Shown: one piece after another, positions 59 to 20,378 of the stretch
How the letters are laid out: each line of letters starts with the position of its first letter
Numbering within the stretch: position 1 is the stretch's first letter
Virus record (IMG/VR): IMGVR_UViG_3300050821_012639
Location: 1-20,378 of that record
Source: a virus
Reading direction: 5' to 3' (one strand)
Length of the DNA: 20,378 nucleotides
Made by a program: the position numbers and the translations under genes
Notes under the pieces: generated by a model
What the model was told of the DNA's origin: nothing
The model's database searches: none
The model's input: only the letters and a program-made list of their open reading frames with translations

Positions 59-99
59 ACCGAAGAGCGGGTGCACGGCGTATGCGGCTTAAGTTCTAG
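19..99. repeat. attL: left attachment-site direct repeat
   Basis: Bases 19-89 match 20281-20351 with one difference (C68 versus T20330). After three mismatches the match GTTCTAG continues to 99 and 20361. The repeat starts in the anticodon loop of tRNA-Ser, runs to the tRNA 5' end at 58 and extends about 41 bases upstream. It is in the same orientation at both ends, as expected after site-specific recombination. The integrase gene starts 82 bases further in. The calling of attL versus attR is arbitrary. Confidence 0.88.
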
Positions 100-157
100 A
101 GTTCCACGCCAGCCCGGTCAACCGACCGGTTAACGTCGCCTGGGAACAAGCCGCGAA

Positions 158-195
158 CTGGCACCGGTTTTGGCACCGGTCTATCTCTTGGCACC
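158..195. promoter_or_regulatory. Putative integrase arm-type sites, left end
   Basis: Three GGCACC motifs lie at 160-165, 172-177 and 190-195, the last inside the 3' end of int. The block GGCACCGGTTTTGGCACC at 160-177 is exactly repeated at 20143-20160 near the other end, in the same orientation. Paired, spaced repeats flanking the core are what tyrosine integrases of the lambda type bind with their N-terminal domain. This role is inferred from position and duplication only. Confidence 0.5.
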
Positions 196-1320
196 GAAGG
201 CCGCTTCAATCGCCTCCGCTGCCTTGTCGTCGCGCGCCGCGAACCTATGGGCGTAGACCTTCAGCGTCGTCGCAGCATTGGCATGACCGATGCGCTGCGA
301 GACGGTCAGTACATCGAGGCCGGCTGAAATCAGCGCGCTAACGTGCGAGTGCCGCAGCGCGTGTAGCATAACCTTGGGAAGCTTCCTTGATCGGCTGATG
401 CGAGCCCAATCCCGGCTTAGGTTGTTCGGAGGGATTGGGCTGCCGTCGATGGTTGAGAAGACGAGATCGTCCGCCTCAAGGCGTCCCATGCCGAGCTGAA
501 GCCGAAGGGCGAGCTGCGCTGCGCGGTGCGCTTTCAAGGCGTCGATTGTCGAAGCCGGTAGCGACACGTTGCGCCGCGATTGCCGGGTCTTTGGCGCTTT
601 GAAGCGCAGGCCGGCGCGGGTCTGCTCGAGGCTGCGCTCGACCCGTAGGACGCCGCGATCGAAATCAATCGTTCCCCAGGTCAGCGCCAGCAGTTCGCCG
701 CGGCGTAACCCTGTCCCGATCGCCACGGTAAAGATCGGTCGCAACCAGTGATCGGAAAGCTTTGTCATGATCTCTGCAACCTCATCGGAGGTCAGGATCG
801 TGACCTCACTGGCCTTGATTTTCGGCGGCTCGGCCGCGCTGGCGACATTTCGGTTGACCTTTTCCAAGCGCAAGGCGACCGCGAGCCCACGGTGTAGGAC
901 ACGGTGCGCGTGCCTGACGGTCTGCGCAGACAGCGGGCGCCCGTTCTTACCGCCCCGGTTCAATAGCGTATCGTGCCACTCCTCGATCTGGGCAAGCTTT
1001 AGGCGTTGAAGCGGCGTCGCGCCGAGGTAGGGGATGATTTGCTGCTCTGCGAGCTGCTGATAGCGCTCGACCGTTTTCCCGCTCAAGCCGTGATTGCCGC
1101 CGAGCCAGGTCCGCAGATGCTGCGCGACGGTCACCTTGCTCGGGTCGATGCCGTTTCCTTCGACCTCGGCAGCGATTAAACGGGCGAGCTCTTTCTTCGC
1201 TGCCGCTCGGTCGCCGCGGAAGGTGACATACCGGGTCCGTCTTGAACCGTCAGGGGCGCTAGCTGCTTCGTATTTGAGCCTGTAACCTTTGCCGCGCTTG
1301 GTAATGCTGCCCTGGCTCAT
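181..1320 (-). CDS. int: Tyrosine recombinase / phage integrase
   Basis: A 379-residue site-specific recombinase that would integrate the element into tRNA-Ser and, with an excisionase, remove it. An N-terminal AP2-like arm-binding segment (about 1-60) is followed by a SAM-like core-binding domain (about 62-155) and a C-terminal catalytic domain. Catalytic residues are visible: R206 in GTGLRRGELLAL, H320 and R323 in HALRHSH, H346 in RIGHANAATT and the nucleophile Y356 in LKVYAHRF. The length is normal for the family and the gene looks intact. ATG at 1320 overlaps the stop of the upstream ribbon-helix-helix gene by four bases and has a GGAGGTGA ribosome site, so the two are translationally coupled. 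The gene ends 82 bases from attL. Confidence 0.96.
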   Translation of the reverse strand: MSQGSITKRGKGYRLKYEAASAPDGSRRTRYVTFRGDRAAAKKELARLIAAEVEGNGIDPSKVTVAQHLRTWLGGNHGLSGKTVERYQQLAEQQIIPYLGATPLQRLKLAQIEEWHDTLLNRGGKNGRPLSAQTVRHAHRVLHRGLAVALRLEKVNRNVASAAEPPKIKASEVTILTSDEVAEIMTKLSDHWLRPIFTVAIGTGLRRGELLALTWGTIDFDRGVLRVERSLEQTRAGLRFKAPKTRQSRRNVSLPASTIDALKAHRAAQLALRLQLGMGRLEADDLVFSTIDGSPIPPNNLSRDWARISRSRKLPKVMLHALRHSHVSALISAGLDVLTVSQRIGHANAATTLKVYAHRFAARDDKAAEAIEAAFGAKR

Positions 1321-3995: not shown

Positions 3996-4568
3996 ATGAG
4001 TGAGGTCGTCACGAAAAGCGAATACGCGCGGCGTCATGGTGTGACGCCGGGTGCCGTGACAGCCTGGCTCGCGCGCGGTCACCTGTCGGCCGAAGCGGTG
4101 ACGGCCGATGGCCGCATTAATGTCGAGATCGCCGACGCGCAGCTGCGCGAGCGGCTCGACCATGCTCGGCACGCGACCGACGTCGATCATCCTCCCGCCG
4201 GCGACGACGCTGTGACGACGCCGGCCGCGGCCGCATTGATCGAGCGTCAGCGCCTCCAGCGAATCGAAGAAAGCGATCTCAGGCTGCGCCGTCTTCGCCG
4301 CGAGGAGCTCGAGCACGCGGGAACCCTGGCGAACGTCGACACCATGGGGAAGGTAATCGGCCGCAGGCTTCAGGAACTGTGGGCGTCGCTCGAGCGCTGG
4401 GGCCAGGATCAACTCCTCGCTGAGCTCAGGCGCGACATCGCCGCCGGCGGTAACGGGATCGAGGTTTGGCGCCGAGAGGTCCGAGCCTTCCGGGCGGCCC
4501 GCGCCGAGGCTGATGAGCGGCTCGCCGTAGCGCTTCCCGAGCTTATCGGCATGGCCGGCGATGTCTGA
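3996..4568 (+). CDS. Terminase small subunit (Nu1-like)
   Basis: A 190-residue protein likely to bind the packaging site and recruit the large subunit. The N-terminal region is a winged helix-turn-helix of the Nu1 type: VVTKSEYARRHGVTPGAVTAWLARG with a following strand (DGRINVEIADAQLRERL), about residues 4-54. A long charged helical region follows (RQRLQRIEESDLRLRRLRRE), matching the self-association part of the family. ATG 3996 has GGGAGGGG upstream and is preferred over the longer frame from 3963. The stop overlaps the start of the large subunit by eight bases, the common terminase arrangement. Confidence 0.8.
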   Translation: MSEVVTKSEYARRHGVTPGAVTAWLARGHLSAEAVTADGRINVEIADAQLRERLDHARHATDVDHPPAGDDAVTTPAAAALIERQRLQRIEESDLRLRRLRREELEHAGTLANVDTMGKVIGRRLQELWASLERWGQDQLLAELRRDIAAGGNGIEVWRREVRAFRAARAEADERLAVALPELIGMAGDV

Positions 4569-6531
4569 GCTGCTGGTCGCCAATGTCGAGCGCCTCGCGC
4601 TTCAGCTCTTCGCCCAGGCGGCGCGGCCGGCGCCCCCGATCGATCTCAACGCCTGGGCGGTTGAGCACATGGAATTCGGTCCCGACTCACCGTTTCCTGG
4701 CCCCTACGACCCCGACCGCCTGCCGTTCTTCCGACGGGTGCTCGAGGTGCTGGGGCCCGACCATCCCTCGCGCCAGGTTGTTCTCCTCAAGTCCGCCCAG
4801 CTGGGCGGAACGCTCTTGGCTCAAATATTCGTCGCGGCCTCTATGGACCTCGACCCTGGCGGCATCCTTCACGTCCATCCGAGCGAGCCGAACGCGACCG
4901 GCTACGCCCGCACGAAGTGGCGCCCGATGCTTAGGTCCTGTCGCCGGCTTGGGCAGATATTCGAACTGCGACAGAGCAAAGAGGGCGGCAACTCGACGCT
5001 TCACCAGGAGCGGCGCGATGGCCTTGGCTGGCTCCGGATCAGCGGGGCGAACAGCGCGGCATCGCTGTCGATGTATTCGGTGAAGCGCTTGGTCAAAGAC
5101 GACCTCAGCAAATGGGAGGACAACGAAGCCGGCGACCCTGAGGCGCAGGCGGAGAGCCGGACGAAGGCATTCAGGGATGCCAAGATCCTCGCGATCGGGA
5201 CCGGCCTGCTCAAGGGCAGGTGCCGAACCACGGCCGCGTTCATGGCTGGCACCCAGGAGCACTGGCACGTTCCCTGTCCGCACTGCGGCCATCGTCACCC
5301 GCTCGAGCCCGAGAATTTCATCGCGAACATCGATCCGGAGCACCCCGAGCGGGCGTGCTTCACCTGCCCCGACTGCGGCGGCGTCATCGATGAAAAGCAC
5401 CGCGCCAAGATCGTCGCGGCCGGCGAATGGGTGGCGCACAAGCCAGGCGCCGCCGACGTGAGCTTTTTTGTATGGGCCGCTTACGCGCCCTTTGAGCCGT
5501 GGGAGCGGATCGCCCGCGCATATTTGGAGGCGAAGGACGATCCGAAAAGCGAGCAGGTTTGGTGGAATGACACCGCCGGGCGAGCTTACGAGCTTCCTGG
5601 CGAAGCCCCGGCCTGGCAGGAACTGAAGGACCGCGCCGAGAAGGCCCAGCGCTTGCGCGGGGTGGTGCCGATCGGCGCGCTCCTGCTCACGCTTTCCTTT
5701 GACGTTCAGGACGATTATGTCGACGGCGTCGTCGTGGGCTGGGGCCGGGATCTGAGGCGCTGGATTGTCGATCGGGTCCGCGTGGAAGGCCATATCTCGA
5801 CCCCGGAGACGCGCGCTGAGCTCAATGAGCTCGTGGGCCGGTCGTGGCCGACCGCGGTTGGGTCTCGCCGGCGGGTCGATCTCACCGGGATTGATGCCAA
5901 CGCGTGGACCGATGACGTCTTCGATTGGGCCAAGACTTTCCCCAAATCGCGGGTCGTCATGGTCCGCGGCGTTGCCGGCGATGCGGCTCCCTCGCTCGCC
6001 ATCGTCCGCAAAGAACGCCGGCGCGACGGAAAGCTCGTCAAATACGCCGGCCGTTTCTTCAACGTCGGCGTCAATGGCCTGAAGGGTGGTCTCTACAAGT
6101 TCCTGCGGGTCACCGACCCCGATCAGCGTGGTTATGTCGATTTCCCGGCCGGTCTCGAGGACGATTTTTACGAGCAGCTGACCGCCGAGAAGCGCACCGC
6201 GGTCATCGACCGCAAGGGGTTCACGATCTACCAGTGGATCAAACCCCGCTCACTCCGGAACGAAATGCTCGACTGCGCCGTCTACGCCGAGGCGCTCGCG
6301 GGAAAAATTGGGTGGCGCACCTTCACCCCGGCGCAGTGGGCCTCGATCGAAGCCGAACGCGAGGTCGCTGCGGCACCGGTCTCAGCCCAGTCCGATCTCT
6401 TTGCGGCGCCCGTGACTCCATCGCCAGCGAGCACCGAGCCGCCAGCGCCGGCCGAGCGCGCGCCACCGTCTCCCGAGAAAGCTGCTCCTGTGCCCAGGTG
6501 GATCAGCCGATTTGCCGGTCGGCAACTGTAG
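4561..6531 (+). CDS. Terminase large subunit, lambda gpA family
   Basis: A 656-residue packaging motor and nuclease. The N-terminal ATPase shows a Walker-A-like segment KSAQLGGT at residues 77-84, and DDLSKWEDNEAGDPE fits the region following the B motif. A zinc-ribbon-like insert has CPHCG near residue 239 and CPDCG near 270, as in gpA-type proteins. The C-terminal nuclease domain begins with LTLSFDVQDDYVDGVVVGWG, where D381 is the likely first metal ligand, and continues with DLTGIDANAWTDDVFDW. The last 50 residues are a Pro/Ala-rich tail ending in a basic helix, which in lambda contacts the portal. Length and motifs are complete. No portal gene follows, which is abnormal for this family. 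Confidence 0.93.
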   Translation: MSELLVANVERLALQLFAQAARPAPPIDLNAWAVEHMEFGPDSPFPGPYDPDRLPFFRRVLEVLGPDHPSRQVVLLKSAQLGGTLLAQIFVAASMDLDPGGILHVHPSEPNATGYARTKWRPMLRSCRRLGQIFELRQSKEGGNSTLHQERRDGLGWLRISGANSAASLSMYSVKRLVKDDLSKWEDNEAGDPEAQAESRTKAFRDAKILAIGTGLLKGRCRTTAAFMAGTQEHWHVPCPHCGHRHPLEPENFIANIDPEHPERACFTCPDCGGVIDEKHRAKIVAAGEWVAHKPGAADVSFFVWAAYAPFEPWERIARAYLEAKDDPKSEQVWWNDTAGRAYELPGEAPAWQELKDRAEKAQRLRGVVPIGALLLTLSFDVQDDYVDGVVVGWGRDLRRWIVDRVRVEGHISTPETRAELNELVGRSWPTAVGSRRRVDLTGIDANAWTDDVFDWAKTFPKSRVVMVRGVAGDAAPSLAIVRKERRRDGKLVKYAGRFFNVGVNGLKGGLYKFLRVTDPDQRGYVDFPAGLEDDFYEQLTAEKRTAVIDRKGFTIYQWIKPRSLRNEMLDCAVYAEALAGKIGWRTFTPAQWASIEAEREVAAAPVSAQSDLFAAPVTPSPASTEPPAPAERAPPSPEKAAPVPRWISRFAGRQL

Positions 6532-7895: not shown

Positions 7896-7897
7896 CC

Positions 7898-9282: not shown

Positions 9283-9293
9283 CCGAGGGGGAT

Positions 9294-10424
9294 ATGCAGA
9301 GTACCGCGAGCGATGTCATCACGGTCAAGTCGAACGGCCAGGCGATTGGCGGCTGGACCGGCGCCAGGGTCACGCGTGGGATCGAGCGGTTGCCCTCGGG
9401 CGTGGCCCTCGAATTCACCGAGCTCTACCCGGGCCAAGCCTCTCCTGCCGTCATCGACCCCGGTAACACGGTCCAGGTCTATCTCGGGCCCGATCTGATC
9501 CTCACCGGCTACGCGAACCTCTATTGGCCGCACGAAGACCAAGGCACGCACATCGTCCGCGCCGAGGCGAGGTCAAAGACGCAGGACCTCGTCGATTGTT
9601 CGCTCGCTCCACCGGCGGCACTGCCGCCCTGGTATTTTCACGCTGCTTCGTTCAAGGCGATCGCCGAGCAGCTCTGCAACCCGTTCAAGATCCAGGTCGT
9701 TATGCCGGACGGGGATGTGTCGCTGATCACGGCGCCGAATGGCGCGTCGATCCCGCCCTTCTCTGTCAATCCAGGAGAGACGCCGGCCGAGCTTCTCGAG
9801 TACATGGCTCGGACCGTCCAGCTCCTGATGTATGATGACCCGCAAGGGCGTCTCGTGCTTGCGAAGGTCGGCACGACGCGAGCGGGTTCATCTCTGGTCG
9901 AGGGTGTGAACTGCGAGGTCGCGGAAGCAAGGTTGTCCGACGATCAGCGCTACTCTCAGATTTATGTCGTCGGCCAAGCGCCGGTGAAGGGTTCGGTCCC
10001 GCCGGTCCTCAATATCGAGGCGTCAGCGCAGGACACTGGCGTAAAGCGCTACCGGCCCAAATTGATCGTGATGGATATGCCGGGACCTGATCTGCGGTTC
10101 GCTCAGCAGCGCGCGAATTGGGAAGTCAGCCGCCGGATCGGTCGATCGATGATCGTCGACGTGACGGTGACCGGTTGGCGCGACGGCAACGGCGCGCTTT
10201 GGACGCCCAATACGATTACGAACTGTTCGCTGCCGAGCATGAAGGTCGAGCGCGACATGCTCATCGCCGAGGTTGCGTGGCTGATGAGCGATGCCGGACA
10301 AACCGCCCTCTTGACGCTGATGCCGCCTGAGGGCTTCCAGCCGCAGCCTTTCTATTTCAACCTATTGCCGGGCTACCAAGACCCGTCACCGACCGAAACG
10401 CGGCCAGAAAATTTGGGGACGTAA
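9294..10424 (+). CDS. Phage baseplate hub protein, Mu gpP (gp44) family
   Basis: A 376-residue protein of the contractile-tail baseplate hub, which joins tail tube to spike. The N-terminal beta-rich domain starts VKSNGQAIGGWTGARVTRGI and continues with FTELYPG, the typical opening of Mu gpP-like proteins, followed by VYLGPDLILTGYANLY. A middle domain holds AIAEQLCNPFKIQV and ETPAELLEYMARTVQLLMYD. The C-terminal part has GNGALWTPNTITNCSLPSM, usual for the last gpP domain. Length matches the family. ATG 9294 has AGGGGG upstream, and the stop directly precedes the ATG of the spike gene. The sheath, tube, tape-measure and other baseplate genes normally found beside it are absent. Confidence 0.85.
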   Translation: MQSTASDVITVKSNGQAIGGWTGARVTRGIERLPSGVALEFTELYPGQASPAVIDPGNTVQVYLGPDLILTGYANLYWPHEDQGTHIVRAEARSKTQDLVDCSLAPPAALPPWYFHAASFKAIAEQLCNPFKIQVVMPDGDVSLITAPNGASIPPFSVNPGETPAELLEYMARTVQLLMYDDPQGRLVLAKVGTTRAGSSLVEGVNCEVAEARLSDDQRYSQIYVVGQAPVKGSVPPVLNIEASAQDTGVKRYRPKLIVMDMPGPDLRFAQQRANWEVSRRIGRSMIVDVTVTGWRDGNGALWTPNTITNCSLPSMKVERDMLIAEVAWLMSDAGQTALLTLMPPEGFQPQPFYFNLLPGYQDPSPTETRPENLGT

Positions 10425-10994
10425 ATGAACCCGCGACTTTGGGATACCTATGACCAGGCTGATCGGTTGCACTTCCGCCAGCGGAACATGCTGGGACATG
10501 GCACTGTCACCCTCGTCGATGACACAGGGCCAGTCCAAGACCTGCAGTACGAGGGATATCCGACCGAGCTCCGCTACGCTGGCAACTACCACCCGCTAGG
10601 CCTCGTCTCAGTGCCCCTACAGGGCGCGACGCTGTTTACTCTCCACCAGGGCGGGCAGCGGGCCTTTAACTCCGTCGTCGGCGTCATGGACGCTCGCTAT
10701 CGGCCGACTAGTCATCAGCCGGGCGAGTTCTCGCTCTACATGGTCGACGGGGCCGGCAATGACGGCGCCGGCGGGACCATGTGGCAGATCCTGCAAGGGC
10801 TGATGGGGGCTGTCTGCAAGCTCTTCGGCAAGACGATGGTGATTGGCGACGGCACCAACACCACGATGATCGACGTCTATGGCAAGACCTCGGTGACCAT
10901 CCACAGCCCGAGCATCAACCTGACGAATGGCGGGGTCCCGAGCCCGGTCGTCACGTTGGCTGGGCCGTCGACCGTGGTTCGCGCGGATGCCTAG
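10425..10994 (+). CDS. Phage baseplate spike protein, Mu gp45 / gpV family
   Basis: A 189-residue membrane-piercing spike of a contractile tail. The N-terminal part (YEGYPTELRYAGNYHPLGL, then GGQRAFNSVVGVMDARYRP) is the OB-fold-like domain of Mu gp45. The C-terminal 60 residues become a regular beta-helix (GKTMVIGDGTNTTMIDVYG, SVTIHSPSINL, PSPVVTLAGPSTVV) that would form the trimeric needle. It starts at the base after the hub gene stop, and both proteins belong to one complex. The next baseplate genes of Mu (gp46, gp47, gp48) do not follow; the block ends here. Confidence 0.85.
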   Translation: MNPRLWDTYDQADRLHFRQRNMLGHGTVTLVDDTGPVQDLQYEGYPTELRYAGNYHPLGLVSVPLQGATLFTLHQGGQRAFNSVVGVMDARYRPTSHQPGEFSLYMVDGAGNDGAGGTMWQILQGLMGAVCKLFGKTMVIGDGTNTTMIDVYGKTSVTIHSPSINLTNGGVPSPVVTLAGPSTVVRADA

Positions 10995-11247
10995 TCGATT
11001 GCGATGAACGTCTTCATCTGCGACGGGTGCGTCGTGCTCGATGGGAAAATGGTAGGATGCTAATTGAGTGGTAGCCCGTGGGATGTCACCGATGAGGGCG
11101 GGGCGCTATGCGACAAATCGAATCCGCGCTCGATCGCCGGTTTGCCCGTCGGAGATGCCGGGTGAGGCTATCCCCCCGACGTCGATCGGAAACATTTGCG
11201 GAATGTCTGGTCGGCTGCCATCGATGCCGGATCGATCAGAGTTCATA
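10995..11247. promoter_or_regulatory. Gap between spike gene and Panacea gene, with two inverted repeats
   Basis: These 253 bases hold no convincing gene; very short frames are present but lack ribosome sites. Two perfect inverted repeats with five-base spacers stand before the Panacea gene: ACATT-TGCGG-AATGT (11192-11206) and ATCGAT-GCCGG-ATCGAT (11220-11236). The second ends 11 bases before the start codon, where a repressor would block transcription or translation. Autoregulation by the downstream pair is a reasonable inference. Confidence 0.4.
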
Positions 11248-11763
11248 ATGATGGCGTTGCGTGCTCCGTACGATGGGCGAGCCGTGGCCAATCTCCTACT
11301 GGATGTCGCAGAGGAGCACGGGGAATTTCTAACTCAGCTTTCGCTCTACAAGATCTTGTATTTTGCTCAGGGCTGGTACCTAGTAGAAAAGGGACAACCA
11401 TTAGTAAAACAAGATTTCGAGGCGTGGAAATACGGTCCAGTGATCAAGGCTGTTAGAGATGAATTTCACTCATTTGGCGATCGACCCATTAGAACACGGG
11501 CCCTAAAGCTAGATATTTATTCAGGAAATAAAATCGAGATCAAACCTGAATTCCCTGATGAAGACAGGCGCTTCGTTAGCAATATCTACCTCGTGTATCA
11601 CGTACACGATGCCTGGAAATTATCCGAGATGACGCATGAAAGGGGGTCACCCTGGGATCGCCTGTGGAACACAGCGCTGCCAATTGGGCGCCTGGCTCTC
11701 AGACTGCGTAACGACGATATCAAAGCGCACTTTGATGGCCTCCCCAAACGACTTCGGGTATGA
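11248..11763 (+). CDS. Panacea-domain (DUF4065, SocA/PanA-like) antitoxin
   Basis: A 171-residue protein with the Panacea domain, found in antitoxins that neutralise many unrelated toxins and in phage-associated proteins. Diagnostic segments are YDGRAVANLLLDVAEEHG, then LSLYKILYFAQGWYLVEKG (about residues 30-48) and FEAWKYGPVIKAVRDEFHS. These match the K-hhYFAqgw and AW.yGPV patterns of the family. The domain fills most of the protein, ending with ERGSPWDRLWN. ATG 11248 or the adjacent ATG 11251 fits the usual family start; the frame open upstream to 11068 looks non-coding. The gene is AT-richer than its neighbours, a sign of separate acquisition. Another gene begins 30 bases downstream, the usual antitoxin-then-toxin arrangement. 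Confidence 0.85.
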   Translation: MMALRAPYDGRAVANLLLDVAEEHGEFLTQLSLYKILYFAQGWYLVEKGQPLVKQDFEAWKYGPVIKAVRDEFHSFGDRPIRTRALKLDIYSGNKIEIKPEFPDEDRRFVSNIYLVYHVHDAWKLSEMTHERGSPWDRLWNTALPIGRLALRLRNDDIKAHFDGLPKRLRV

Positions 11764-11793
11764 TCGAGTGATCGCCTCTCCCGGAGCTTCGGT

Positions 11794-12540
11794 ATGGCTG
11801 GAGTTCTTTTTCTTAACGTCCTCGATGTTGCTCGCGCTCTAGGTTTCAGCCCGCTAAGTGCGACCCCAGAGCAGGTGGCCGAGTGGCTTGCGAACGAATA
11901 CAACACTAACCGCGGCGGAGGCTTCAATTATGATCCGGCCATCCGCGCTACATTTGACTTGTTTAGGGGTGCCATAACCGCGGAGAGAGCTATCGAATAC
12001 TGTGGAACCCTGGGGAATCCGAAAGGTCGAAAGGCGAATACGGAGGCGATTGCTGAGGTCTGCCCCTACGCAGTCGACAATATTTCGACCTGCTATCACA
12101 TCGGGTTCACCGCGGTCGCAGTAGGACGATTCGCGGACTCCACGGTCTACATCGGCATCAAAGCGCCGATGGTTCGCGTGAACCGGCGCGAAGCTTTTGT
12201 CGTGATGCCGGGTTTCCGGAAGGGTCATAGACCGACGGAAGTGCAAATCGATCTTGCTTGCTCAATCGCACTGGCAACCTTTGCTCGTGATGATTTTGCA
12301 GGAGCAGACTTCGAGTATCTGTATGCGGGTCCCGGCGCGAGCGGAAAGCGCGAGTTTCGGGCGATACTCGGCCGCGATCGAAAAATATTTGATCGCGACA
12401 GCATCGATTCGCTTCTCGACGTTTATGTGAATGGCGTCGCGCTTGCAGCGAAAGCGGGTGCCGACATCCGACCGCCTAAGATGGATGGCTATAGGATTAT
12501 TGATCCTCGTGAGCCCGGCTTCTGGGATTCTCCGGGGTGA
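11794..12540 (+). CDS. Unrecognised protein paired with Panacea; candidate toxin
   Basis: A 248-residue, probably soluble protein starting at ATG 11794, with GGAG eight bases upstream and 30 bases after the Panacea gene. A helical N-terminal third (VLDVARALGFSPLSATPEQV) precedes a central beta-rich part with YAVDNISTCYHIGFTAVAVG and VYIGIKAPMVRVN. After KREFRAILGRDRKIFDRDSI, the C-terminal part ends GYRIIDPREPGFWDSP. No Fic, RelA-like, RelE-like, PIN or other toxin motif known to me is visible. Panacea antitoxins are known to pair with many toxin folds, so position makes this a candidate toxin, perhaps of a new type. It could also be an unrelated cargo gene. Confidence 0.65.
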   Translation: MAGVLFLNVLDVARALGFSPLSATPEQVAEWLANEYNTNRGGGFNYDPAIRATFDLFRGAITAERAIEYCGTLGNPKGRKANTEAIAEVCPYAVDNISTCYHIGFTAVAVGRFADSTVYIGIKAPMVRVNRREAFVVMPGFRKGHRPTEVQIDLACSIALATFARDDFAGADFEYLYAGPGASGKREFRAILGRDRKIFDRDSIDSLLDVYVNGVALAAKAGADIRPPKMDGYRIIDPREPGFWDSPG

Positions 12541-12566
12541 TCAGGGAGTTCGACTAACTGGAGCAC

Positions 12567-12764
12567 TCACCTCGCCAATCGAGACAACAGTCGACGGATA
12601 GCCGGCGATAAGGGCTTTCCGGTTGCCACCAGGCGACGCTTCACCGGGCGGACCGGCAAAACTACGATTTCATCGCCTGTCGGCCGGCGTTGTTGCTCGC
12701 GTCGCAACTCCTCCATACGAGCGCGGATCGCGGCAAAATCGTCGGCAGCGCGCGGCTGTAGCAT
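12567..12764 (-). CDS. Small basic hypothetical protein
   Basis: A 65-residue protein on the minus strand, ATG 12764, with GAGGGG about seven bases upstream. It has a charged helix (DFAAIRARMEELRREQQRRP), a short strand (EIVVLPVRPVKRRLV) and a basic C-terminal helix (SPAIRRLLSRLAR). No family was recognised. It is the last of three closely spaced minus-strand genes and converges with the Panacea partner gene 26 bases away. Confidence 0.5.
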   Translation of the reverse strand: MLQPRAADDFAAIRARMEELRREQQRRPTGDEIVVLPVRPVKRRLVATGKPLSPAIRRLLSRLAR

Positions 12765-12815
12765 GTTTCCATCCCCTCATCTCTTTGTCCTTAGGGGAGC
12801 ACTCTAGCGCGCGCA

Positions 12816-13058
12816 TCAGTCGGGTTCATCAGGGATGTGTTCAGCGGGTGCGGAGGCGATTTCTTCGGCCTGAATTTCCCGCATCCGATCACCAATCGAG
12901 GCCAGATCCTTGAAGACACTCGTCGGTGTTGAGCGGGGCCGCGCCTCGACCCAGCGCGGAACGCAGGTCAACAGCGCGGTGAGAAACTCGCTGCTGTGGC
13001 CGCCGCACCAGCGGCAGATGCCGTCGATAAAATCATGTTCGCGGACCATCTCTTCCAC
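12816..13058 (-). CDS. Small hypothetical protein with CxxC motif
   Basis: An 80-residue protein read from GTG 13058; ATG 13049 is an alternative start. The N-terminal EHDFIDGICRWCGGHSSEF has a CRWC pair that may bind a metal together with nearby His residues. The C-terminal half is acidic and helical (FKDLASIGDRMREIQAEEIA). No family was recognised. The start lies six bases after the stop of a small membrane-peptide gene, so the two are probably coupled. Confidence 0.5.
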   Translation of the reverse strand: MEEMVREHDFIDGICRWCGGHSSEFLTALLTCVPRWVEARPRSTPTSVFKDLASIGDRMREIQAEEIASAPAEHIPDEPD

Positions 13059-13064
13059 CGGCCG

Positions 13065-13172
13065 TCACCGACCGATGAAAGCGTTAAACCAGAGGACCGC
13101 TGCTACGTATCCAACCCCCGCTACAAAGGCGACGCTTCCCAATCCAATCAATGTACCGGCAAACCATTTCAT
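13065..13172 (-). CDS. Single-span membrane peptide (35 residues)
   Basis: A minus-strand frame from ATG 13172 to TGA 13065 encoding 35 residues. After MKWFAG comes one hydrophobic helix (TLIGLGSVAFVAGVGYVAAV) and a short tail ending FNAFIGR. This is a clean transmembrane span with codon use like its neighbours. The ribosome site is weak. The following gene begins six bases after its stop. Upstream (13180-13260) the DNA is AT-rich and could hold the promoter of the three-gene unit. Confidence 0.45.
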   Translation of the reverse strand: MKWFAGTLIGLGSVAFVAGVGYVAAVLWFNAFIGR

Positions 13173-13378
13173 CCGAGATCGCCACAAATTTAATGGCCGT
13201 GGGTCAGCATTCGGCACAACCAATAAAATACACAAAGAATTTTATGCTTAATTCTTCGAGCTGTTGGCGCGCTTCCTGAGCAAGAGGTGGCGATCATCCA
13301 GTCGGAGCCAAATCCGTAGCTCGCGAGAAAATTAGCCCGGTATTTGATTTGGATTAACCATAAATTGTCTTGCACCTC

Positions 13379-13402
13379 CTCGACTAACTCCTCGTAGTCG
13401 AG
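13379..13402 (+). promoter_or_regulatory. Hairpin overlapping the ribosome site of the next gene
   Basis: CTCGACTA (13379-13386) pairs perfectly with TAGTCGAG (13395-13402) around an eight-base loop. The 3' arm contains most of the GAGG that could serve ATG 13407, so folding of the mRNA would limit translation. It has no U-run and is not a terminator. The remaining 13173-13378 region holds no gene I can support. Confidence 0.35.
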
Positions 13403-13406
13403 GCCG

Positions 13407-13604
13407 ATGAATGAGCTGACCGCCTTTAAGCACTACTTTGATGCCGTGGAGGCCGCGGAAACGCCAACGTGGCGCTCGGTCTTCATGCTGGGTTTGATGT
13501 GTGCTGCTGCAGTCAGTCATGGGAGTCTGGTGGCGTTTGTCGACGACACCGGTTACGGCACTGATTGGCCCGACCCTCGAACGACGGATGCACCTTCCCG
13601 ATGA
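13407..13604 (+). CDS. Small hypothetical membrane protein
   Basis: A 65-residue protein from ATG 13407. One hydrophobic segment (SVFMLGLMCAAAVSHGSLVA, about residues 24-43) is followed by a short acidic, Pro-containing tail (DDTGYGTDWPDPRTTD). The stop TGA overlaps the ATG of the next small gene as ATGA, which supports both as a coupled pair. A hairpin covers its ribosome site. The minus strand is also open here, so the call is moderate. Confidence 0.42.
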   Translation: MNELTAFKHYFDAVEAAETPTWRSVFMLGLMCAAAVSHGSLVAFVDDTGYGTDWPDPRTTDAPSR

Positions 13605-13753
13605 CCACTTTCGCCCCCGTCGGCAAGGTTGGCACCGGCATGCCCTACAGCGTGATCAGCACCAAGCGGCGCAAGGGTAATAAGCATGGCTCCGCGCTCG
13701 TCGGCCTCATCGTGCTCCTGGCCGTTTGCGCCTTGGTTTGGAAGCTGCTTTAG
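13601..13753 (+). CDS. Single-span membrane peptide (50 residues)
   Basis: A 50-residue protein with a polar N-terminus, a basic patch (STKRRKGNKHG) and a C-terminal transmembrane helix (ALVGLIVLLAVCALVWKLL). ATG 13601 overlaps the previous stop by four bases, so translation is probably by re-initiation. The basic stretch before a C-terminal anchor predicts the N-terminus in the cytoplasm. No family was recognised. The 265 bases after it, to 14018, hold no gene I can support on either strand. Confidence 0.45.
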   Translation: MTTFAPVGKVGTGMPYSVISTKRRKGNKHGSALVGLIVLLAVCALVWKLL

Positions 13754-14018
13754 CCTGGCGTCTTCCGGGTTGTTCCCGCTCTGCTATCGATTGGTGGAAC
13801 CGCCGACGGACGCGCGCCTCGAGAGCGAGACGTGCTCGCCTTTGGCGAAATCGGGCCCATCGTACGCGCAGATCATAGAACCAGACGCGCGCGAGCAACG
13901 GCCCCTACTTGTGGATTTGGACGAGTCGATAGCGCTCCATTTGGCGTAGAGCATAGGTCACGAGGGAGGAGCTGCGCGAGCGGCTTGCGACCGCCCGGCG
14001 ACCGCAGCGCCCATTTGT

Positions 14019-14174
14019 TTACAGCTCGTTGTTAAGGAGCGTTTGCCTCAAGGCACGCTCGTAGGTAGATGGGTTCCATACACCTCTGATCCCGACCGAC
14101 ACGAGAAACAGGGTCACGGCCACCATGGCGACGATCCACGCCTTGCTAAGCGCGTGCAGTTGATACTCCGACAA
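14019..14174 (-). CDS. Single-span membrane peptide (51 residues, TTG start)
   Basis: On the minus strand, TTG 14174 is preceded six bases upstream by AGGAG, a near-ideal ribosome site, and opens a 51-residue frame to TAA 14019. The protein has a polar start (SEYQLHALSK), a clear membrane helix (AWIVAMVAVTLFLVSVGI) and a charged tail (WNPSTYERALRQTLLNNEL). There is no ATG in the frame upstream. It diverges from the plus-strand gene at 14400. Function is unknown. Confidence 0.5.
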   Translation of the reverse strand: MSEYQLHALSKAWIVAMVAVTLFLVSVGIRGVWNPSTYERALRQTLLNNEL

Positions 14175-14399
14175 TTCCAGCTCCTCAACGTAGGCCCGCG
14201 AGGTTCTTGCATCCCGCGTGCCGCCGGCGCATGCTGCGCGTAGCCCTTCACAAGGCTATGCACAGAGCCATCATGCTCAACTCGTGTCCGGCGGCCGTTG
14301 TCGTATGTCCAGGGGGAAACCCTAAAGGGCAACGGGGACGACTCTGTGCGTCTTGTGAACCGCCGGGCTCTTGGCGTCCCGTCACAAGGAGCACAGAGC

Positions 14400-15125
14400 A
14401 TGACGACCGACAAAGACCATTCTGAAAAGCCATCCAGCCGTAAGCCGCAAATCCTGATTACCGAGGAGCAGTTTGTCGCGACGGAGAGAGCCATCGTCGA
14501 TCTACTCGCCAAGCGAATGGCTCTAGACGATCTGGAGCGTGAGGCGGTGGAGCACAGCGAAGCGCTGAGGATTCAAAAAACTCAGATCGATCCGCTCACC
14601 GACGAAATCTTTGATCTTTACGCGGACATCTGTGCGTCGCCGCCGCTGGACCGGCGTACCGCCCTGATCAAGCTGCGCCTCGCCGTCATCCCATCTCTGG
14701 GATTCGATGCATCGGACGAGGGATACGGAAGCTTGCTCCAGGTTTCCGCCTTTCTCGACGGCGGGAAGCACGCGTACGTGCCGCTGCCCAGCGGCCTGAG
14801 CCGACTTCAAAAAATGATCGTGGTAGAGGAACAAATTCGATCGCTGGCCGTCAGAATCAGCGACGCGGCCGACAACTTCAGTTTCTGGCTCGAGAAGCAA
14901 GAGCAGGACGTTCGGGAGCTCGCCGGCGGCGTCGACCTTGAGGAGATTTACCGCCTCTACCACAAGATCGATGACGGCGTACCCGACACCCTGCGTAATC
15001 AGATCACCAACACGCCCCCGGCCAGCCTTGCCGAGGCGATCGCACTGCTCGAGCTGGCCGCCCCATCCCTAGACGCGGTGATCGCCGGGCTCCGCGCCAT
15101 CGCGGAGAAAGGGGGTGTGGCATGA
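14400..15125 (+). CDS. Hypothetical helical protein
   Basis: A 241-residue, largely helical and acidic protein. ATG 14400 has AAGGAG eight bases upstream and is preferred to the open frame from 14298. Segments include LITEEQFVATERAIVDLLAK, a charged helix to residue 60 and SRLQKMIVVEEQIRSLAVRI. An Ala/Leu-rich C-terminal helix begins SLAEAIALLELAAPSLDAVI. No catalytic motif or membrane span is visible and no family was recognised. The stop overlaps the start of the next gene by four bases, so the two form a translationally coupled pair. Confidence 0.7.
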   Translation: MTTDKDHSEKPSSRKPQILITEEQFVATERAIVDLLAKRMALDDLEREAVEHSEALRIQKTQIDPLTDEIFDLYADICASPPLDRRTALIKLRLAVIPSLGFDASDEGYGSLLQVSAFLDGGKHAYVPLPSGLSRLQKMIVVEEQIRSLAVRISDAADNFSFWLEKQEQDVRELAGGVDLEEIYRLYHKIDDGVPDTLRNQITNTPPASLAEAIALLELAAPSLDAVIAGLRAIAEKGGVA

Positions 15126-15600
15126 GCGCGCGCAACAAACAGCACCCGATCACAAGCCTGCCGTTCGTGTTCGACCATGCGCCGACATCCCGACGCAACT
15201 CGAAACGGAGCTTTTGGCACGTTACGCCGTCGGGCGACTACGGTGAGGACTGTAGGACCGGCTCTCGCTACGCCGTCGAGTACCTGCGCGTTGTGGCGGA
15301 GGAGGATAAGGCGGTTTATCGCAGCGGGGGGTGGCTCGCGCTGATCGTCGGTGCCATGCGCAAGGCTCTCGCCGACGGTGAGCGGTCTGGTATCGAGGGG
15401 GATTTCTCCAAACCATCGGGTTCGCCGCGAAATTCGGATGGAGGCAGGCCGAGCAGCTGCACCTGGACACCGAATTTTATTGGCGAATGGAGGGCAAAGG
15501 GTCGCTCGTCAACCAGCGGCCCGATGGCTCCGTGGTGATCGAGCAGCCGGACGGCACGCGCGCTGTCTATCGCAAGGTAGAGCCCGCCACGGGGAACTGA
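15122..15600 (+). pseudogene. Hypothetical gene broken by a one-base frameshift
   Basis: ATG 15122 overlaps the previous stop as ATGA. The first frame runs to 15538 (138 residues). After the five-G run at 15397-15401 its sequence becomes low in complexity. The frame one base back stays open and protein-like from the same point to TGA 15598: GFLQTIGFAAKFGWRQAEQL, then EFYWRMEGKGSLVNQRPDGS. Adding one G restores a 159-residue protein. The N-terminal part has FWHVTPSGDYGEDCRTGSRY and YRSGGWLALIVGAMRKAL. No family was recognised. The break may be a real mutation, a sequencing error in the G run, or programmed slippage. A terminator follows 54 bases downstream. Confidence 0.65.
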
Positions 15601-15653
15601 TCAGGGTCAGCCAGCGTTATCACAGCTGCACCTAGTAGCTTCCTCTCGCACCT

Positions 15654-15683
15654 CCCGGCGTCGCCCTGCGGCGCCGGGTTTTT
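15654..15683 (+). terminator. Rho-independent terminator
   Basis: A perfect seven-base GC stem, CCCGGCG (15654-15660) with CGCCGGG (15672-15678), is followed at once by TTTTT and then CTTT. It lies 54 bases after the restored stop of the two-gene unit at 14400-15600 and would end that transcript. Confidence 0.8.
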
Positions 15684-15750
15684 CTTTGCTGGCTTCTCGG
15701 CAGTGCGTAACAAAAAATCCCGTGGCGCGCGAACACGGACGAGAATAAGC

Positions 15751-15854
15751 TTAACAACGGCGCGAGACGACCCCAAACCTCGGCCGCGCTGCTTCCCGGA
15801 AGCGAGCCCGGCCGCCCCCCGCGTGCCGGGCTCTTCCGTTTCTACGGCCCGTAC
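15751..15854 (+). repeat. Double-hairpin repeat, copy 1
   Basis: This begins TTAACAACGGCGCGAGACGA. It then forms hairpin GCTTC-CCG-GAAGC (15791-15803) and directly after it a nine-base stem GAGCCCGGC (15804-15812) / GCCGGGCTC (15825-15833). It ends CGTTTCTACGGCCCGTAC. Related copies lie near 17280 and 17444. Stems are kept while loops differ, which suggests a structured RNA or a mobile repeat. No U-run follows the second stem. Confidence 0.55.
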
Positions 15855-15968
15855 CGTAAGCGCCGACCCTGCCACGGGTGATCGGTCGGCACGATGGATG
15901 CAAGCGCGTGATGACGCGCGAGGCAACGTTATGCTGCCATCGCCAAGCGGATGATGGGGAGGCGGAGC

Positions 15969-16055
15969 ATGCTGACTTATGCGGACTATCTGGCAGCGGC
16001 GCTTACGGTCGGTTGCCTCTGCGCCGTGCTGTATGGCGTTTTGTTCATCCTCTAG
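15969..16055 (+). CDS. Single-span membrane peptide (28 residues)
   Basis: ATG 15969 to TAG 16055 encodes 28 residues: a short polar start (MLTYADYLAA) and one hydrophobic helix (ALTVGCLCAVLYGVLFIL) to the end. GGAGG and CGGAG lie just upstream, a strong ribosome site. ATG 15951 in the same frame would add six residues. It is followed 29 bases later by an even smaller membrane peptide. Short hydrophobic peptides occur as type I toxins, as holin-like proteins and as subunits of membrane complexes; nothing here decides between these. Confidence 0.5.
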   Translation: MLTYADYLAAALTVGCLCAVLYGVLFIL

Positions 16056-16084
16056 GCGCGGACAAGTTGCCGGGCAAGGGCGAG

Positions 16085-16153
16085 ATGGTCGTGATGACGG
16101 TCTTGCTGGCCGTCTTGGTCATCAGCCTCTGTGCGCTATTCCTCCTCCTGTAG
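16085..16153 (+). CDS. Single-span membrane peptide (22 residues)
   Basis: ATG 16085 to TAG 16153 encodes 22 residues that are almost wholly hydrophobic (MTVLLAVLVISLCALFLLL after MVV). AAGG lies five bases upstream. The frame is open further upstream but is not protein-like there. Its distance to the preceding peptide gene suggests a shared message. A frame this short can occur by chance, but the fully membrane-like composition and the similar neighbours argue for a gene. Confidence 0.4.
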   Translation: MVVMTVLLAVLVISLCALFLLL

Positions 16154-16230
16154 CCGAGCGGGCGCAGCGGAAGCGCTAGCGTAGGGAAGCGGGTCGAGGG
16201 CAGGGTCAGAGGAGACAGCGCCTCCAGGAG

Positions 16231-16341
16231 CTAGCGCGGCTGCTCCAGCTTGCGGACCCGCTGCTCGAGGACTTCGATCTGCGTAGCTAATAGAGCGCCG
16301 TAAGCGCCGACGAAGATGGCCCGGCTACGGAAGAAACAGTC
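16231..16341 (-). pseudogene. Probable 3' part of the 79-residue membrane protein gene, out of frame
   Basis: A minus-strand frame without a start codon reads FFRSRAIFVGAYGALLATQI, then EVLEQRVRKLEQPR, to TAG at 16233-16231. It lies in the frame next to the preceding membrane protein gene, whose frame stops at 16325. Removing one T from the TTT run (16334-16336) joins the two into a 110-residue protein with a further membrane segment and a charged C-terminal helix. Confidence 0.4.
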
Positions 16342-16564
16342 GAACGCTCATGCACGCGGCGGAGAGCCCCGAAAACCCAGCGGCCCATTTGTTCATAACG
16401 GCCGAAAATCGGATCGCTCTTAGGTACGGGTCGCCTTCCGGCACATCTCCATCCCAATAGAGGCGTTGACGCGGTAAGCGTCTCAGGGCGGAGAGAAACC
16501 AGAACACCGCCGCGACAAGGGCGAACACCGCCGCGCTGATTTCCAAGAACCTAGCGCGCGGCAC
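16325..16564 (-). CDS. Small membrane protein, probably truncated by a frameshift
   Basis: A 79-residue protein from GTG 16564. One membrane helix near the start (FLEISAAVFALVAAVFWFL) is followed by a basic turn (RRLPRQRLYWDGDVPEGDPY) and a second hydrophobic part (MNKWAAGFSGLSAACMSV). GTG 16564 begins two bases after the upstream gene's stop, which supports the start by coupling, although no good ribosome site is present. The C-terminus VRLFLP is probably the product of an extra T at 16334-16336; see the downstream open frame to 16231. No family was recognised. Confidence 0.55.
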   Translation of the reverse strand: MPRARFLEISAAVFALVAAVFWFLSALRRLPRQRLYWDGDVPEGDPYLRAIRFSAVMNKWAAGFSGLSAACMSVRLFLP

Positions 16565-16566
16565 GG

Positions 16567-16710
16567 CTAACCCGCGAGAACTCGGACGAGATGGCTGATC
16601 GCCTCCAGCTGTGCTTCGCTTTTGATCTCGCCAAGATTGCGCATGAGGTTGAAGAGCATTTGCGGCGTCTGCCCCACCTCATTCGCCGACCAGCATGTCG
16701 AAGACCACAC
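16567..16710 (-). CDS. Small helical hypothetical protein
   Basis: A minus-strand frame from GTG 16710 (47 residues), with GGGAGG seven bases upstream. GTG 16677 is an alternative that gives 36 residues and follows directly on the stop of the overlapping 21-codon frame. The core is a helical segment, QTPQMLFNLMRNLGEIKSEA, then QLEAISHLVRVLAG. A one-base change near 16681 would instead join it to the upstream short frame as one 58-residue protein. It ends two bases before the next start. Function is unknown. Confidence 0.45.
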   Translation of the reverse strand: MWSSTCWSANEVGQTPQMLFNLMRNLGEIKSEAQLEAISHLVRVLAG

Positions 16711-16744
16711 GTCGACGCCTCCCGGGTTTGGGCGTTTTGTCCAT
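16679..16744 (-). CDS. Short basic frame, possibly the N-terminus of the next protein
   Basis: ATG 16744 to TGA 16679 encodes 21 residues: a basic start (DKTPKPGRRRR) and a hydrophobic end (VVFDMLVGE). It begins three bases after the stop of a membrane-peptide gene and overlaps the following gene. It may be translated alone. Its style and position also fit the N-terminal part of the following protein separated by a one-base shift. Confidence 0.3.
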   Translation of the reverse strand: MDKTPKPGRRRRVVFDMLVGE

Positions 16745-16747
16745 CCG

Positions 16748-16855
16748 TCATAGAGCCAAAGCGACCGCTACCAAGGCAAGGATCAAAAGGACCAGCGGCA
16801 GGCTCCTGATCAAGCTGTCAGGACTTGGCGGTGTTCGTCGCCGGTTGCCGGCCAT
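16748..16855 (-). CDS. Single-span membrane peptide (35 residues)
   Basis: ATG 16855 to TGA 16748 on the minus strand encodes 35 residues. A basic, Pro-rich start (AGNRRRTPPSPD) is followed by one long hydrophobic helix (LPLVLLILALVAVALAL) at the C-terminus. It is the first gene of a compact minus-strand series running to 16231, with gaps of three bases or overlaps. The ribosome site is weak (GAG). The 256 bases upstream, to 17111, hold no gene I can support. Confidence 0.45.
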   Translation of the reverse strand: MAGNRRRTPPSPDSLIRSLPLVLLILALVAVALAL

Positions 16856-17111
16856 ATCTCAGCATCGCGTCATTTGCGACGCGGGGTCAACCTCATCGCC
16901 TGGTGTCGCCCAGCGGCGCGCCGGGCTTTTGTTCGGCAGCGGTAGCGGTGCGCGCGACGCCGAGGCGCGGCTAGGTCTGGCCGCTGAAAAACCGGGCCTC
17001 ACCGCGGCGCGGGACGCGTTCGGCATCGATCTTGCTGGATCGAGCCGGTCGATTAGCGCCCACGACAGTCACTCACTACTAAAGCGCGGAGCGCATTGGG
17101 GAGAGTTCCCG

Positions 17112-17222
17112 ATGGGCATGAAGCTTTACTGGATCACGTTAGGCGCCACGCTGCTGGTCTTGGCGGTACTCCTCCTCAACAACGTTGTGAGGCGGGGTCG
17201 GGATCGACACGGCCAGCACTGA
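17112..17222 (+). CDS. Single-span membrane peptide (36 residues)
   Basis: ATG 17112 to TGA 17222 encodes 36 residues, with GGGGAG eight bases upstream. After MGMKLYW comes a membrane helix (ITLGATLLVLAVLLLNNVV) and a basic tail (RRGRDRHGQH), a typical C-in topology by the positive-inside rule. The frame is open from 16695, but the upstream part is not protein-like. It is followed by two double-hairpin repeats. It shares size and design with the other micro-membrane proteins here but not sequence. Confidence 0.5.
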   Translation: MGMKLYWITLGATLLVLAVLLLNNVVRRGRDRHGQH

Positions 17223-17279
17223 TGGCTGGCGCCAGAGGGCTCTTTTCCCCGTGACGCGCCCACCGCAACGGGAATACGG

Positions 17280-17390
17280 TTAATACCGGCGCGAAAGGTG
17301 ATCTCCCTTGGTCTTCCATCGCACTCTTCCCCCGACGAGGGAAGAGAGCCCGGCACCTCGCCACGAGTGCCGGGCTCTGTCCCTTCGGGC
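17280..17390 (+). repeat. Double-hairpin repeat, copy 2
   Basis: This begins TTAATACCGGCGCGA, like copy 1. Hairpin one is CTCTTCCC (17324-17331) / GGGAAGAG (17339-17346). Hairpin two is a perfect 11-base stem, GAGCCCGGCAC (17346-17356) / GTGCCGGGCTC (17367-17377). The stem sequences differ from copy 1 in a compensated way while the layout is kept. Confidence 0.55.
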
Positions 17391-17443
17391 TAAACCAAAA
17401 TTAAGCATCAAATTCTTTGCGTAATTTACGGGTGTGCTGAGAT

Positions 17444-17560
17444 CTTGATCGCGGCGCGTGACGACCCCCACAACCCGGATCGCGCCGCTTCCCCACCCGG
17501 AAGCGAGCCCGGCCTTTCTCCCCGATTGTGCCGGGCTCATCTGTTTCTAAGGCCCGTACA
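17444..17560 (+). repeat. Double-hairpin repeat, copy 3
   Basis: Hairpin one is GCTTCC (17487-17492) / GGAAGC (17499-17504). Hairpin two is GAGCCCGGC (17505-17513) / GCCGGGCTC (17530-17538). The end CTGTTTCTAAGGCCCGTAC is nearly the same as in copy 1, as is the stretch GCGCGTGACGACCCC before the hairpins. It lies 14 bases past the stop of the NUMOD3-like gene on the other strand, so it could also end that transcript. Confidence 0.55.
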
Positions 17561-17573
17561 GCTCCGCTGCTCT

Positions 17574-17936
17574 CTAGCTTTTGGCGGTATCCCTATTCTT
17601 GCGGCGCCTTTTGGCAGCCTTCATGCTCGCTACTATCTTGGCTCGCATCTCCGGATCAGCCCACCGCTTCTTGGCCGCCGCCCCTTGTTTTTGACGCGCA
17701 ACCGGATCGGCGTGAATCGCCCGTAAGTGGGCGACCATTCTTTCGCGTATCGCAGGATCAGCCCATCTAGCTTTTGAGACTTCACTCATCTTTTCTCGGC
17801 TAGCCGGGCTGCGGATCGCGGCTCTGATTCTCGCCCCTGTTACCGGATCGGCCCATCGCGCCTTCGTTATGGCGCTTTGTCTCTCACGCATTTCAGGGGT
17901 GGCCCGCGGTCGGGGGTTAGCACGGCTCGGTTTCAT
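17574..17936 (-). CDS. NUMOD3-like repeat protein
   Basis: A 120-residue, very basic protein built of repeats of about 24 residues around the motif KARWADP (copies SAITKARWADPVTGARI, SEVSKARWADPAIRERM and AAKKRWADPEMRAKI, plus weaker AIRSPASREKM and AIHADPVARQK). This is the pattern of NUMOD3-type modules, DNA-binding helices normally attached to GIY-YIG or HNH homing endonucleases. No nuclease domain is present, so it is a stand-alone repeat protein or a nuclease remnant. ATG 17936 has GGGGGA just upstream; GTG 17978 would add 14 residues and overlap the preceding gene. It ends in a lysine/arginine-rich tail (KAAKRRRKNRD). Confidence 0.65.
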   Translation of the reverse strand: MKPSRANPRPRATPEMRERQSAITKARWADPVTGARIRAAIRSPASREKMSEVSKARWADPAIRERMVAHLRAIHADPVARQKQGAAAKKRWADPEMRAKIVASMKAAKRRRKNRDTAKS

Positions 17937-17958
17937 TTCCCCCGGGGGCCCATTGTTG

Positions 17959-18258
17959 TTACGCCCGTTGGCGATCACGATCAGCGGCCGGTTTATGGCG
18001 CGCAGGGTGCGAACTCTCGGTCACCTTTATTGAAGGCCTCGGCTGAGGCCACAGGCGCCGCAAAAGCCGGAGGGACAGCCAAAAAAAGCCGACACCGAAG
18101 ACGAGAGTTATCGGGTCGGTGAGGCGCAAAATCCATGATGTCGGGGCGAATGCAAGCGAGGCTGGTGCACCCAGGCCGATCAGGATCGCGGTCGACAACA
18201 CTTCAGCCCCGACAATGGCGACGAAGAGGCTAAGTGTGATGCGACCGATTTTACGCAT
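17959..18258 (-). CDS. Small membrane protein, two spans
   Basis: A 99-residue protein from ATG 18258, with AGGA about nine bases upstream. Two hydrophobic segments are visible: ITLSLFVAIVGAEVLSTAIL (about residues 7-26) and ITLVFGVGFFWLSLRLL (about 50-66). A basic, polar cytoplasmic tail follows (RRLWPQPRPSIKV). It precedes the NUMOD3-like gene and the two may be co-transcribed. No family was recognised. Confidence 0.6.
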   Translation of the reverse strand: MRKIGRITLSLFVAIVGAEVLSTAILIGLGAPASLAFAPTSWILRLTDPITLVFGVGFFWLSLRLLRRLWPQPRPSIKVTESSHPARHKPAADRDRQRA

Positions 18259-18410
18259 GCATTGATCCTGGAAATGAAGCCGCGGTCAGCGTCTACTCGG
18301 CATCCTACAAGCAGGACTGGTGCCAAGGGAGGGATGCACGATCGGTGAATTATCGCTCGGCTTCGGTGATCATCAGGCGGGAGCGGACAGCCACTTGGTG
18401 GAGGACGGCG

Positions 18411-20225: not shown

Positions 20226-20280
20226 GACATTCCGCGGCTTTCCGGTATCGGAGCCTGTTTTTCGGTACAGCGGAAACCAT

Positions 20281-20320
20281 TTTAGCAAACCGCCGCCTTC
20301 AGCCACTCGGCCACCCCTCC
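20281..20320 (-). pseudogene. tRNA-Ser(GCU) 5' fragment
   Basis: The minus strand repeats the first 40 bases of tRNA-Ser, from GGAGGGG at 20320 to the anticodon loop at 20281. It then changes to unrelated element sequence. The fragment lacks the variable arm, T arm and acceptor 3' strand and cannot make a tRNA. It is the original chromosomal 5' half left behind after integration. Confidence 0.85.
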
Positions 20321-20361
20321 ACCGAAGAGTGGGTGCACGGCGTATGCGGCTCCCGTTCTAG
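20281..20361. repeat. attR: right attachment-site direct repeat
   Basis: This matches 19-99 with four differences over 81 bases, in direct orientation. Bases after about 20361 share nothing with the left end and are flanking chromosome, the original upstream region of the tRNA gene. Bases before 20281 are element DNA. Confidence 0.88.
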
Positions 20362-20378
20362 TGTTTGGGTTGGGGCAA

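What the first reader, a model, noticed from the sequence alone, without database searches (positions are those of the whole stretch)
12567..18258. Cluster of very small membrane proteins on both strands
At least seven frames of 22-65 codons and two longer ones each encode one or two hydrophobic helices with little else: 13172, 13407, 13601, 14174, 15969, 16085, 16564, 16855, 17112 and 18258 (start positions). Several have strong ribosome sites or ATGA overlaps, and their sequences are unrelated. No endolysin or known holin is present. Such a concentration suggests a shared membrane-directed role (lysis control, superinfection exclusion, type I toxins) that standard gene finders would miss because of size.
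Basis: partly seen in the sequence, partly recalled or inferred. Interest (0 to 1): 0.7.

Follow-up and report, generated by a model that had tools for sequence, protein, structure and literature searches.

The report
Small membrane proteins in prophage cargo
A tRNA-inserted, partly decayed prophage of an alphaproteobacterium carries an unusually dense run of tiny, mutually unrelated membrane-protein genes; at least two belong to apparently unnamed protein families that also sit alone in chromosomes of one bacterial order, so they look like ordinary host-type cargo rather than a phage lysis or exclusion module.

Summary
The cluster is real and far above chance: 8 short ORFs with a strongly hydrophobic helix in 5.9 kb, against 0.14 in shuffles, 0.07 per kb in related host DNA and none in the first 11 kb of the window. 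The window is a complete IMG/VR record bounded by a 102-nt direct repeat of a tRNA-Ser gene: an integrated element with integrase, terminase and two Mu-type baseplate genes, but no recognised head, portal or lysis gene. The ORFs lie in its right-hand cargo half. Relatives of two (13407, 14174) occur as solitary short genes between unrelated genes in chromosomes of the likely host order, frame and length kept. None matches Pfam, PHROGs or NCBIfam significantly; they are unrelated to each other, on both strands, in several units. A shared lysis, exclusion or toxin role is therefore not supported; independent host-type cargo is the best reading. Function is unknown for all ten, and most have no confident relative. 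Upstream of the 240-aa cargo gene amid the cluster lies a strongly covarying C4-type antisense RNA whose pairing strand is complementary to that gene's ribosome-binding site. It falls below Rfam's thresholds and is probably the most testable feature here.

The parts
1..103 (-). attL-like repeat: 5' half of a tRNA-Ser gene plus upstream DNA
   Evidence: 102-nt direct repeat, 87%; sub-threshold Rfam tRNA match; up to 96% identical to DNA of host-order genomes
20264..20365 (-). attR-like copy of the same repeat
181..1320 (-). tyrosine integrase
   Evidence: PF00589; related integrase beside the same tRNA in G426
4561..6531 (+). GpA-type terminase large subunit
   Evidence: PF20454, PF05876; relatives in IMG/VR 63-74% identical
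9294..10994 (+). two Mu-type baseplate genes (gp44-like, gp45-like)
11068..12540 (+). Panacea (SocA-like) antitoxin-domain gene followed by a 248-aa partner gene
   Evidence: PF13274; the adjacent pair is conserved in G205 (partner 57% identical)
12567..12764 (-). soluble 65-aa protein (RAADDFAAIRARMEELRRE), not membrane
   Evidence: relatives in roughly 20 of the 43 host-order genomes, often several copies
13065..13172 (-). 35-aa membrane peptide
   Evidence: KD maximum 2.07; weak possible 29-aa relative in G426, E 0.02
13407..13604 (+). 65-aa membrane protein, conserved family
   Evidence: 75-aa relative in G426 next to clpB, 47% identical, E 4e-13
13601..13753 (+). 50-aa protein with C-terminal helix, ATGA overlap with 13407
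   Evidence: KD maximum 2.66; codon third-position GC 0.84; no relative found
14019..14174 (-). 51-aa single-helix membrane protein (TTG start), conserved family
   Evidence: relatives in G426, G408, G410, G409, G423; start signal -6.6
14236..14402 (+). C4-type antisense RNA leader; the strand at about 14382-14399, with the ribosome-binding site, is the predicted target
   Evidence: fold z -5.05; covariation; duplexes
14400..15125 (+). cargo gene (241 codons from ATG 14400) downstream of the RNA, family unknown
   Evidence: low-confidence all-helical model
15122..15600 (+). second gene of that unit, apparently frameshifted near 15397
   Evidence: frame comparison
15654..15678 (+). terminator-like hairpin ending the 14400-15600 unit
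   Evidence: pattern match; total number of such sites is near chance
15969..16055 (+). 28-aa membrane peptide with strong start signal
   Evidence: KD 2.45; -10.3 kcal/mol
16085..16153 (+). 22-aa membrane peptide
   Evidence: KD 3.03
16325..16564 (-). 79-aa protein with two hydrophobic segments
   Evidence: KD 2.38; no relative found
16748..16855 (-). 35-aa membrane peptide
   Evidence: KD 2.66; no start signal found
17112..17222 (+). 36-aa membrane peptide with good start signal
   Evidence: -7.2 kcal/mol, codon third-position GC 0.81
17959..18258 (-). 99-aa membrane protein
   Evidence: KD 2.3; no relative found

Best explanation
The ORFs are real small membrane-protein genes carried as accessory cargo in the right half of a tRNA-Ser-integrated, partly decayed prophage. 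They come from the same pool of short orphan genes found between ordinary genes in chromosomes of the host order. Each probably acts alone in the inner membrane, as small single-helix proteins commonly do (for example as an accessory subunit or modulator of a larger membrane protein), for the benefit of the lysogen rather than the virion. Shown: excess over chance, boundaries of the element, in-frame similar-length chromosomal relatives for two of the ten. Inferred: translation of all ten, the individual membrane functions, and benefit to the host.
For: Excess over shuffles and over real DNA. Boundaries and phage genes. Family of 14174 in five host-order genomes, with conserved AL..AW and, in most, VWNS..Y..L, beside unrelated genes. 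Family of 13407 beside clpB. Differences fall most often at third codon positions: 24/22/38 for 13407, 21/13/26 for 14174 against G426. The soluble neighbour 12567 is dispersed through the host order. No family-library match, no mutual relatedness.
Against: Most of the ten have no confident relative. Why so many membrane peptides sit together is not explained by cargo acquisition alone. No expression data.
Confidence: 0.55

Rival explanations
1. A phage membrane module: unrecognised holins, antiholins, spanins or superinfection-exclusion peptides acting at lysis or at entry of a second phage.
For: Location in a prophage; small size and single helices; overlapping pair 13407/13601; exclusion proteins are often short membrane proteins (general knowledge).
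Against: No endolysin or other lysis gene among the ORFs tested; 13407 and 14174 have chromosomal relatives outside evident prophage settings; both strands, several units.
Confidence: 0.15
2. Hydrophobic toxins, type I or similar, at least for the 22-36-aa peptides 15969, 16085, 16855 and 17112.
For: Size and composition resemble known short hydrophobic toxins (general knowledge); strong start signal at 15969. Panacea antitoxins can neutralise small membrane toxins (PMC8832971) and one lies at 11068.
Against: The Panacea gene has its own conserved adjacent partner, 11794. No antitoxin RNA or toxin-antitoxin arrangement was seen near these peptides, though this was not searched exhaustively.
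Confidence: 0.1
3. Decay products: fragments of larger lost membrane proteins or chance frames in relaxed cargo DNA.
For: The element is incomplete and a neighbouring gene is frameshifted; start signals of six frames are ordinary.
Against: Chance alone gives 0.14 where 8 are seen; the two with relatives keep about their full length; no match to larger membrane families.
Confidence: 0.15

Closest known systems
Prophage accessory (moron) genes
   Same: Short, individually arranged genes in a variable zone of an integrated prophage, outside the structural genes
   Different: Here most encode tiny membrane peptides, two with clear relatives in host-order chromosomes; no function shown
Bacterial small membrane proteins in general (PMC10903887)
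   Same: Single helix, under about 100 aa, easily missed by standard annotation
   Different: The families of 13407 and 14174 match no model in the libraries searched
C4 antisense RNA of phages P1/P7 (Rfam RF01695) and sRNA-Xcc1 (RF02221)
   Same: Structured leader whose internal strand is complementary to the ribosome-binding site of the next gene; relatives found here precede an ORF6N-domain gene (L123, PF10543 E 6e-19) and a weakly Rha-like gene (L118, below Pfam's cut-off)
   Different: The window copy scores only 24.7 bits for sRNA-Xcc1 (cut-off 53) and does not match the C4 model; it precedes a cargo gene with no antirepressor match

Membership tests
Integrated prophage | Site-specific integrase and flanking att repeats | tested here: met
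   PF00589 integrase; 102-nt tRNA-Ser repeat at both ends
Integrated prophage | Complete set of head, tail and lysis genes | tested here: not met
   Only terminase genes, a minor tail protein and two baseplate genes recognised; several ORFs have no match and could hide others
Holin/endolysin lysis cassette | Endolysin near small membrane genes | tested here: not met
   No lysis enzyme among ORFs scanned with Pfam and PHROGs
Holin/endolysin lysis cassette | Membrane peptides match known holin families | tested here: not met
Type I toxin | Antisense RNA antitoxin on or beside the toxin mRNA | not tested
   Only Rfam, promoter and terminator scans were made; no candidate seen
Type I toxin | Toxicity on expression | not testable with these tools
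   needs experiment
Panacea toxin-antitoxin pair (11068/11794) | Panacea-domain gene beside a conserved partner | tested here: met
   toxicity and neutralisation not tested
C4 antisense RNA family | Match to the curated Rfam model at its cut-off | tested here: not met
C4 antisense RNA family | Internal strand complementary to downstream ribosome-binding site | tested here: met
   -26.5 kcal/mol with its own target; -7.4 when the L058 target is paired with the window strand
C4 antisense RNA family | Conserved structure with covariation | tested here: met
   93.3% of cells paired against 34-42% when slid; 35 pairs with double changes; the alignment was fitted to the model, which favours it

The most novel reading that the evidence does not exclude
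The cluster is a coordinated set of unrelated membrane micro-proteins that a prophage has assembled to remodel the lysogen's inner membrane, with neighbouring cargo under control of a C4-type antisense RNA.
Probability: 0.07. Interest if true: 0.7.

Novelty: new member of a known kind. Interest (0 to 1): 0.38.

Why it matters
It gives two apparently unnamed small membrane-protein families with a defined host range, short enough to test directly, and shows that prophage cargo zones can hold many genes that annotation misses. It also shows a C4-type antisense RNA, known from phage antirepressor control, placed in front of an unrelated cargo gene.

Tried and rejected
Plasmid and phage record collections: no DNA match to 11000-18400; tblastn of the 240-aa gene and the protease gave nothing useful. 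IMG/VR scans with the 240-aa, 248-aa, protease and 99-aa proteins found no relatives. The class-wide sample of 385 genomes gave no convincing relative of the membrane peptides or the 240-aa gene, so the families seem confined to the host order; the sample is thin. An alignment of the 14174 family was too divergent for a viral scan. The 35-nt motif at 13219/17399 was not found elsewhere. Padloc gave only weak, non-credible matches. Structure models of the 240-aa and 248-aa proteins were too poor to search. A reading of the conserved leader as a short coding frame was considered: a frame is open in both copies with some protein similarity, but the substitutions are compensatory in helices, so RNA is preferred.

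Full report
What the window is. It is an entire IMG/VR record of 20378 bases. Its two ends carry a 102-nt direct repeat, 87% identical. The repeat is the 5' half of a tRNA-Ser gene with its upstream DNA; Rfam's tRNA model matches it weakly, and genomes of one alphaproteobacterial order match it at up to 96%. One of these, G426, has a related integrase beside the same tRNA. The element holds a tyrosine integrase, a helix-turn-helix gene, a minor tail protein, small and large (GpA) terminase genes and two Mu-type baseplate genes. No head, portal or lysis gene was recognised, though several ORFs match nothing. I read it as a partly decayed integrated prophage.

Is the cluster real. All ten frames exist. 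In 12541-18400, 10 ORFs of 20-100 aa reach a hydrophobicity of 1.6 and 8 reach 2.0, against 0.88 and 0.14 in dinucleotide shuffles. Because shuffles ignore real gene structure, I also counted real DNA: none at 2.0 in window 1-11000, 13 in 181 kb of host-order contigs, 7 in 117 kb of related IMG/VR contigs, and never more than 2 in any host stretch of the same length. Poisson P is about 2e-8. Some host contigs were fetched because they hold relatives of these very proteins, which makes this control conservative. Start signals are strong for 15969, 17112 and 14174, intermediate for 13407 and ordinary for the rest.

What the proteins are. None matches Pfam, PHROGs or NCBIfam significantly (the three shortest were not sent to NCBIfam), and they are not related to each other. 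To look for relatives I joined the peptides with X spacers into one query, which saves searches but leaves short peptides with little statistical power. Protein 13407 has a 75-aa relative in G426, 47% identical, E 4e-13, lying beside clpB. Protein 14174 has relatives in G426, G408, G410, G409 and G423, each a short gene among unrelated genes (the G410 contig was not read in full); G423's is the weakest (E 3e-5). They share AL..AW before the helix and, in most, VWNS..Y after it. Base differences are commonest at third codon positions, as expected of coding sequence, but the sequences are too diverged for a proper rate test. Protein 13172 has only a suggestive relative (E 0.02). The remaining peptides have none.

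How they most likely work. Relatives as solitary chromosomal genes argue that at least these two serve the host, not the phage. I infer that each sits in the inner membrane and modifies a larger membrane protein, but no partner is identified. The soluble neighbour 12567 has relatives in roughly 20 of the 43 host-order genomes, which also points to a shared pool of short host genes. Lysis, exclusion and toxin readings remain open for the peptides without relatives, and decay remains possible for some. Gene naming in the relatives' neighbourhoods (clpB, amidase and so on) is my reading of the translations, not a library scan.

The RNA amid the cluster. A stretch of about 170 nt before the 240-aa gene (14236-14402) is 75% identical to a stretch before a different gene in G423. 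It folds far better than shuffles (z -5.05), and with only these two sequences nine pairs already change on both sides with none broken. A model of it found further copies in alphaproteobacterial genomes. On 16 matches, 93.3% of cells pair against 34-42% for slid controls; the alignment was fitted to the model, which inflates this, but the slid controls share the alignment. An internal strand pairs both with an upstream strand and with the ribosome-binding site of the next gene (-26.0 and -26.5 kcal/mol; mismatched pairings between the two sequences give -7.4). In L123 the next gene has an ORF6N domain (E 6e-19) and in L118 it is weakly Rha-like, below Pfam's cut-off; such domains occur in phage regulators including antirepressors (general knowledge). 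This is the arrangement of the C4 system of P1 and P7, where the RNA blocks translation of the antirepressor message (PMC12197685). The window copy is below Rfam's cut-offs, so I call it C4-type in mechanism, not a member of the Rfam family.

Novelty and weight. Tiny membrane proteins in prophage cargo are a known kind; the two families are apparently unnamed new members. The density is unusual, and the RNA gives a clear test. Interest is moderate.

Noticed in passing
14236-14402: C4-type antisense RNA in front of a cargo gene, with three-strand complementarity and relatives across alphaproteobacteria, below Rfam cut-offs.
   Followed up: yes
11068-12540: Panacea antitoxin-domain gene with a conserved adjacent 248-aa partner of unknown fold, probably a toxin-antitoxin pair.
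   Followed up: partly
15122-15600: Gene apparently interrupted by a frameshift near 15397 (run of G), either a pseudogene or an assembly error.
   Followed up: partly
15758-15854, 17280-17387, 17452-17559: Three related modules ending in GAGCCCGGC...GCCGGGCTC hairpins; in the loci held, the hairpin pattern occurs only once outside this element (L012).
   Followed up: partly
13219-13253 and 17399-17433: Inverted pair of a 35-nt A+T-rich motif (AATTAAGCATNAAATTCTTTG), upstream of 13172 and of a hairpin module; not found in viral contigs.
   Followed up: partly
17574-17978 (-): 134-aa protein with repeated RWADP..R motifs, resembling modular DNA-binding repeats; no significant library match.
   Followed up: no
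18411-19820 (-): Aspartyl-protease-domain protein with a long glutamine-rich stretch, at the right end of the element.
   Followed up: no
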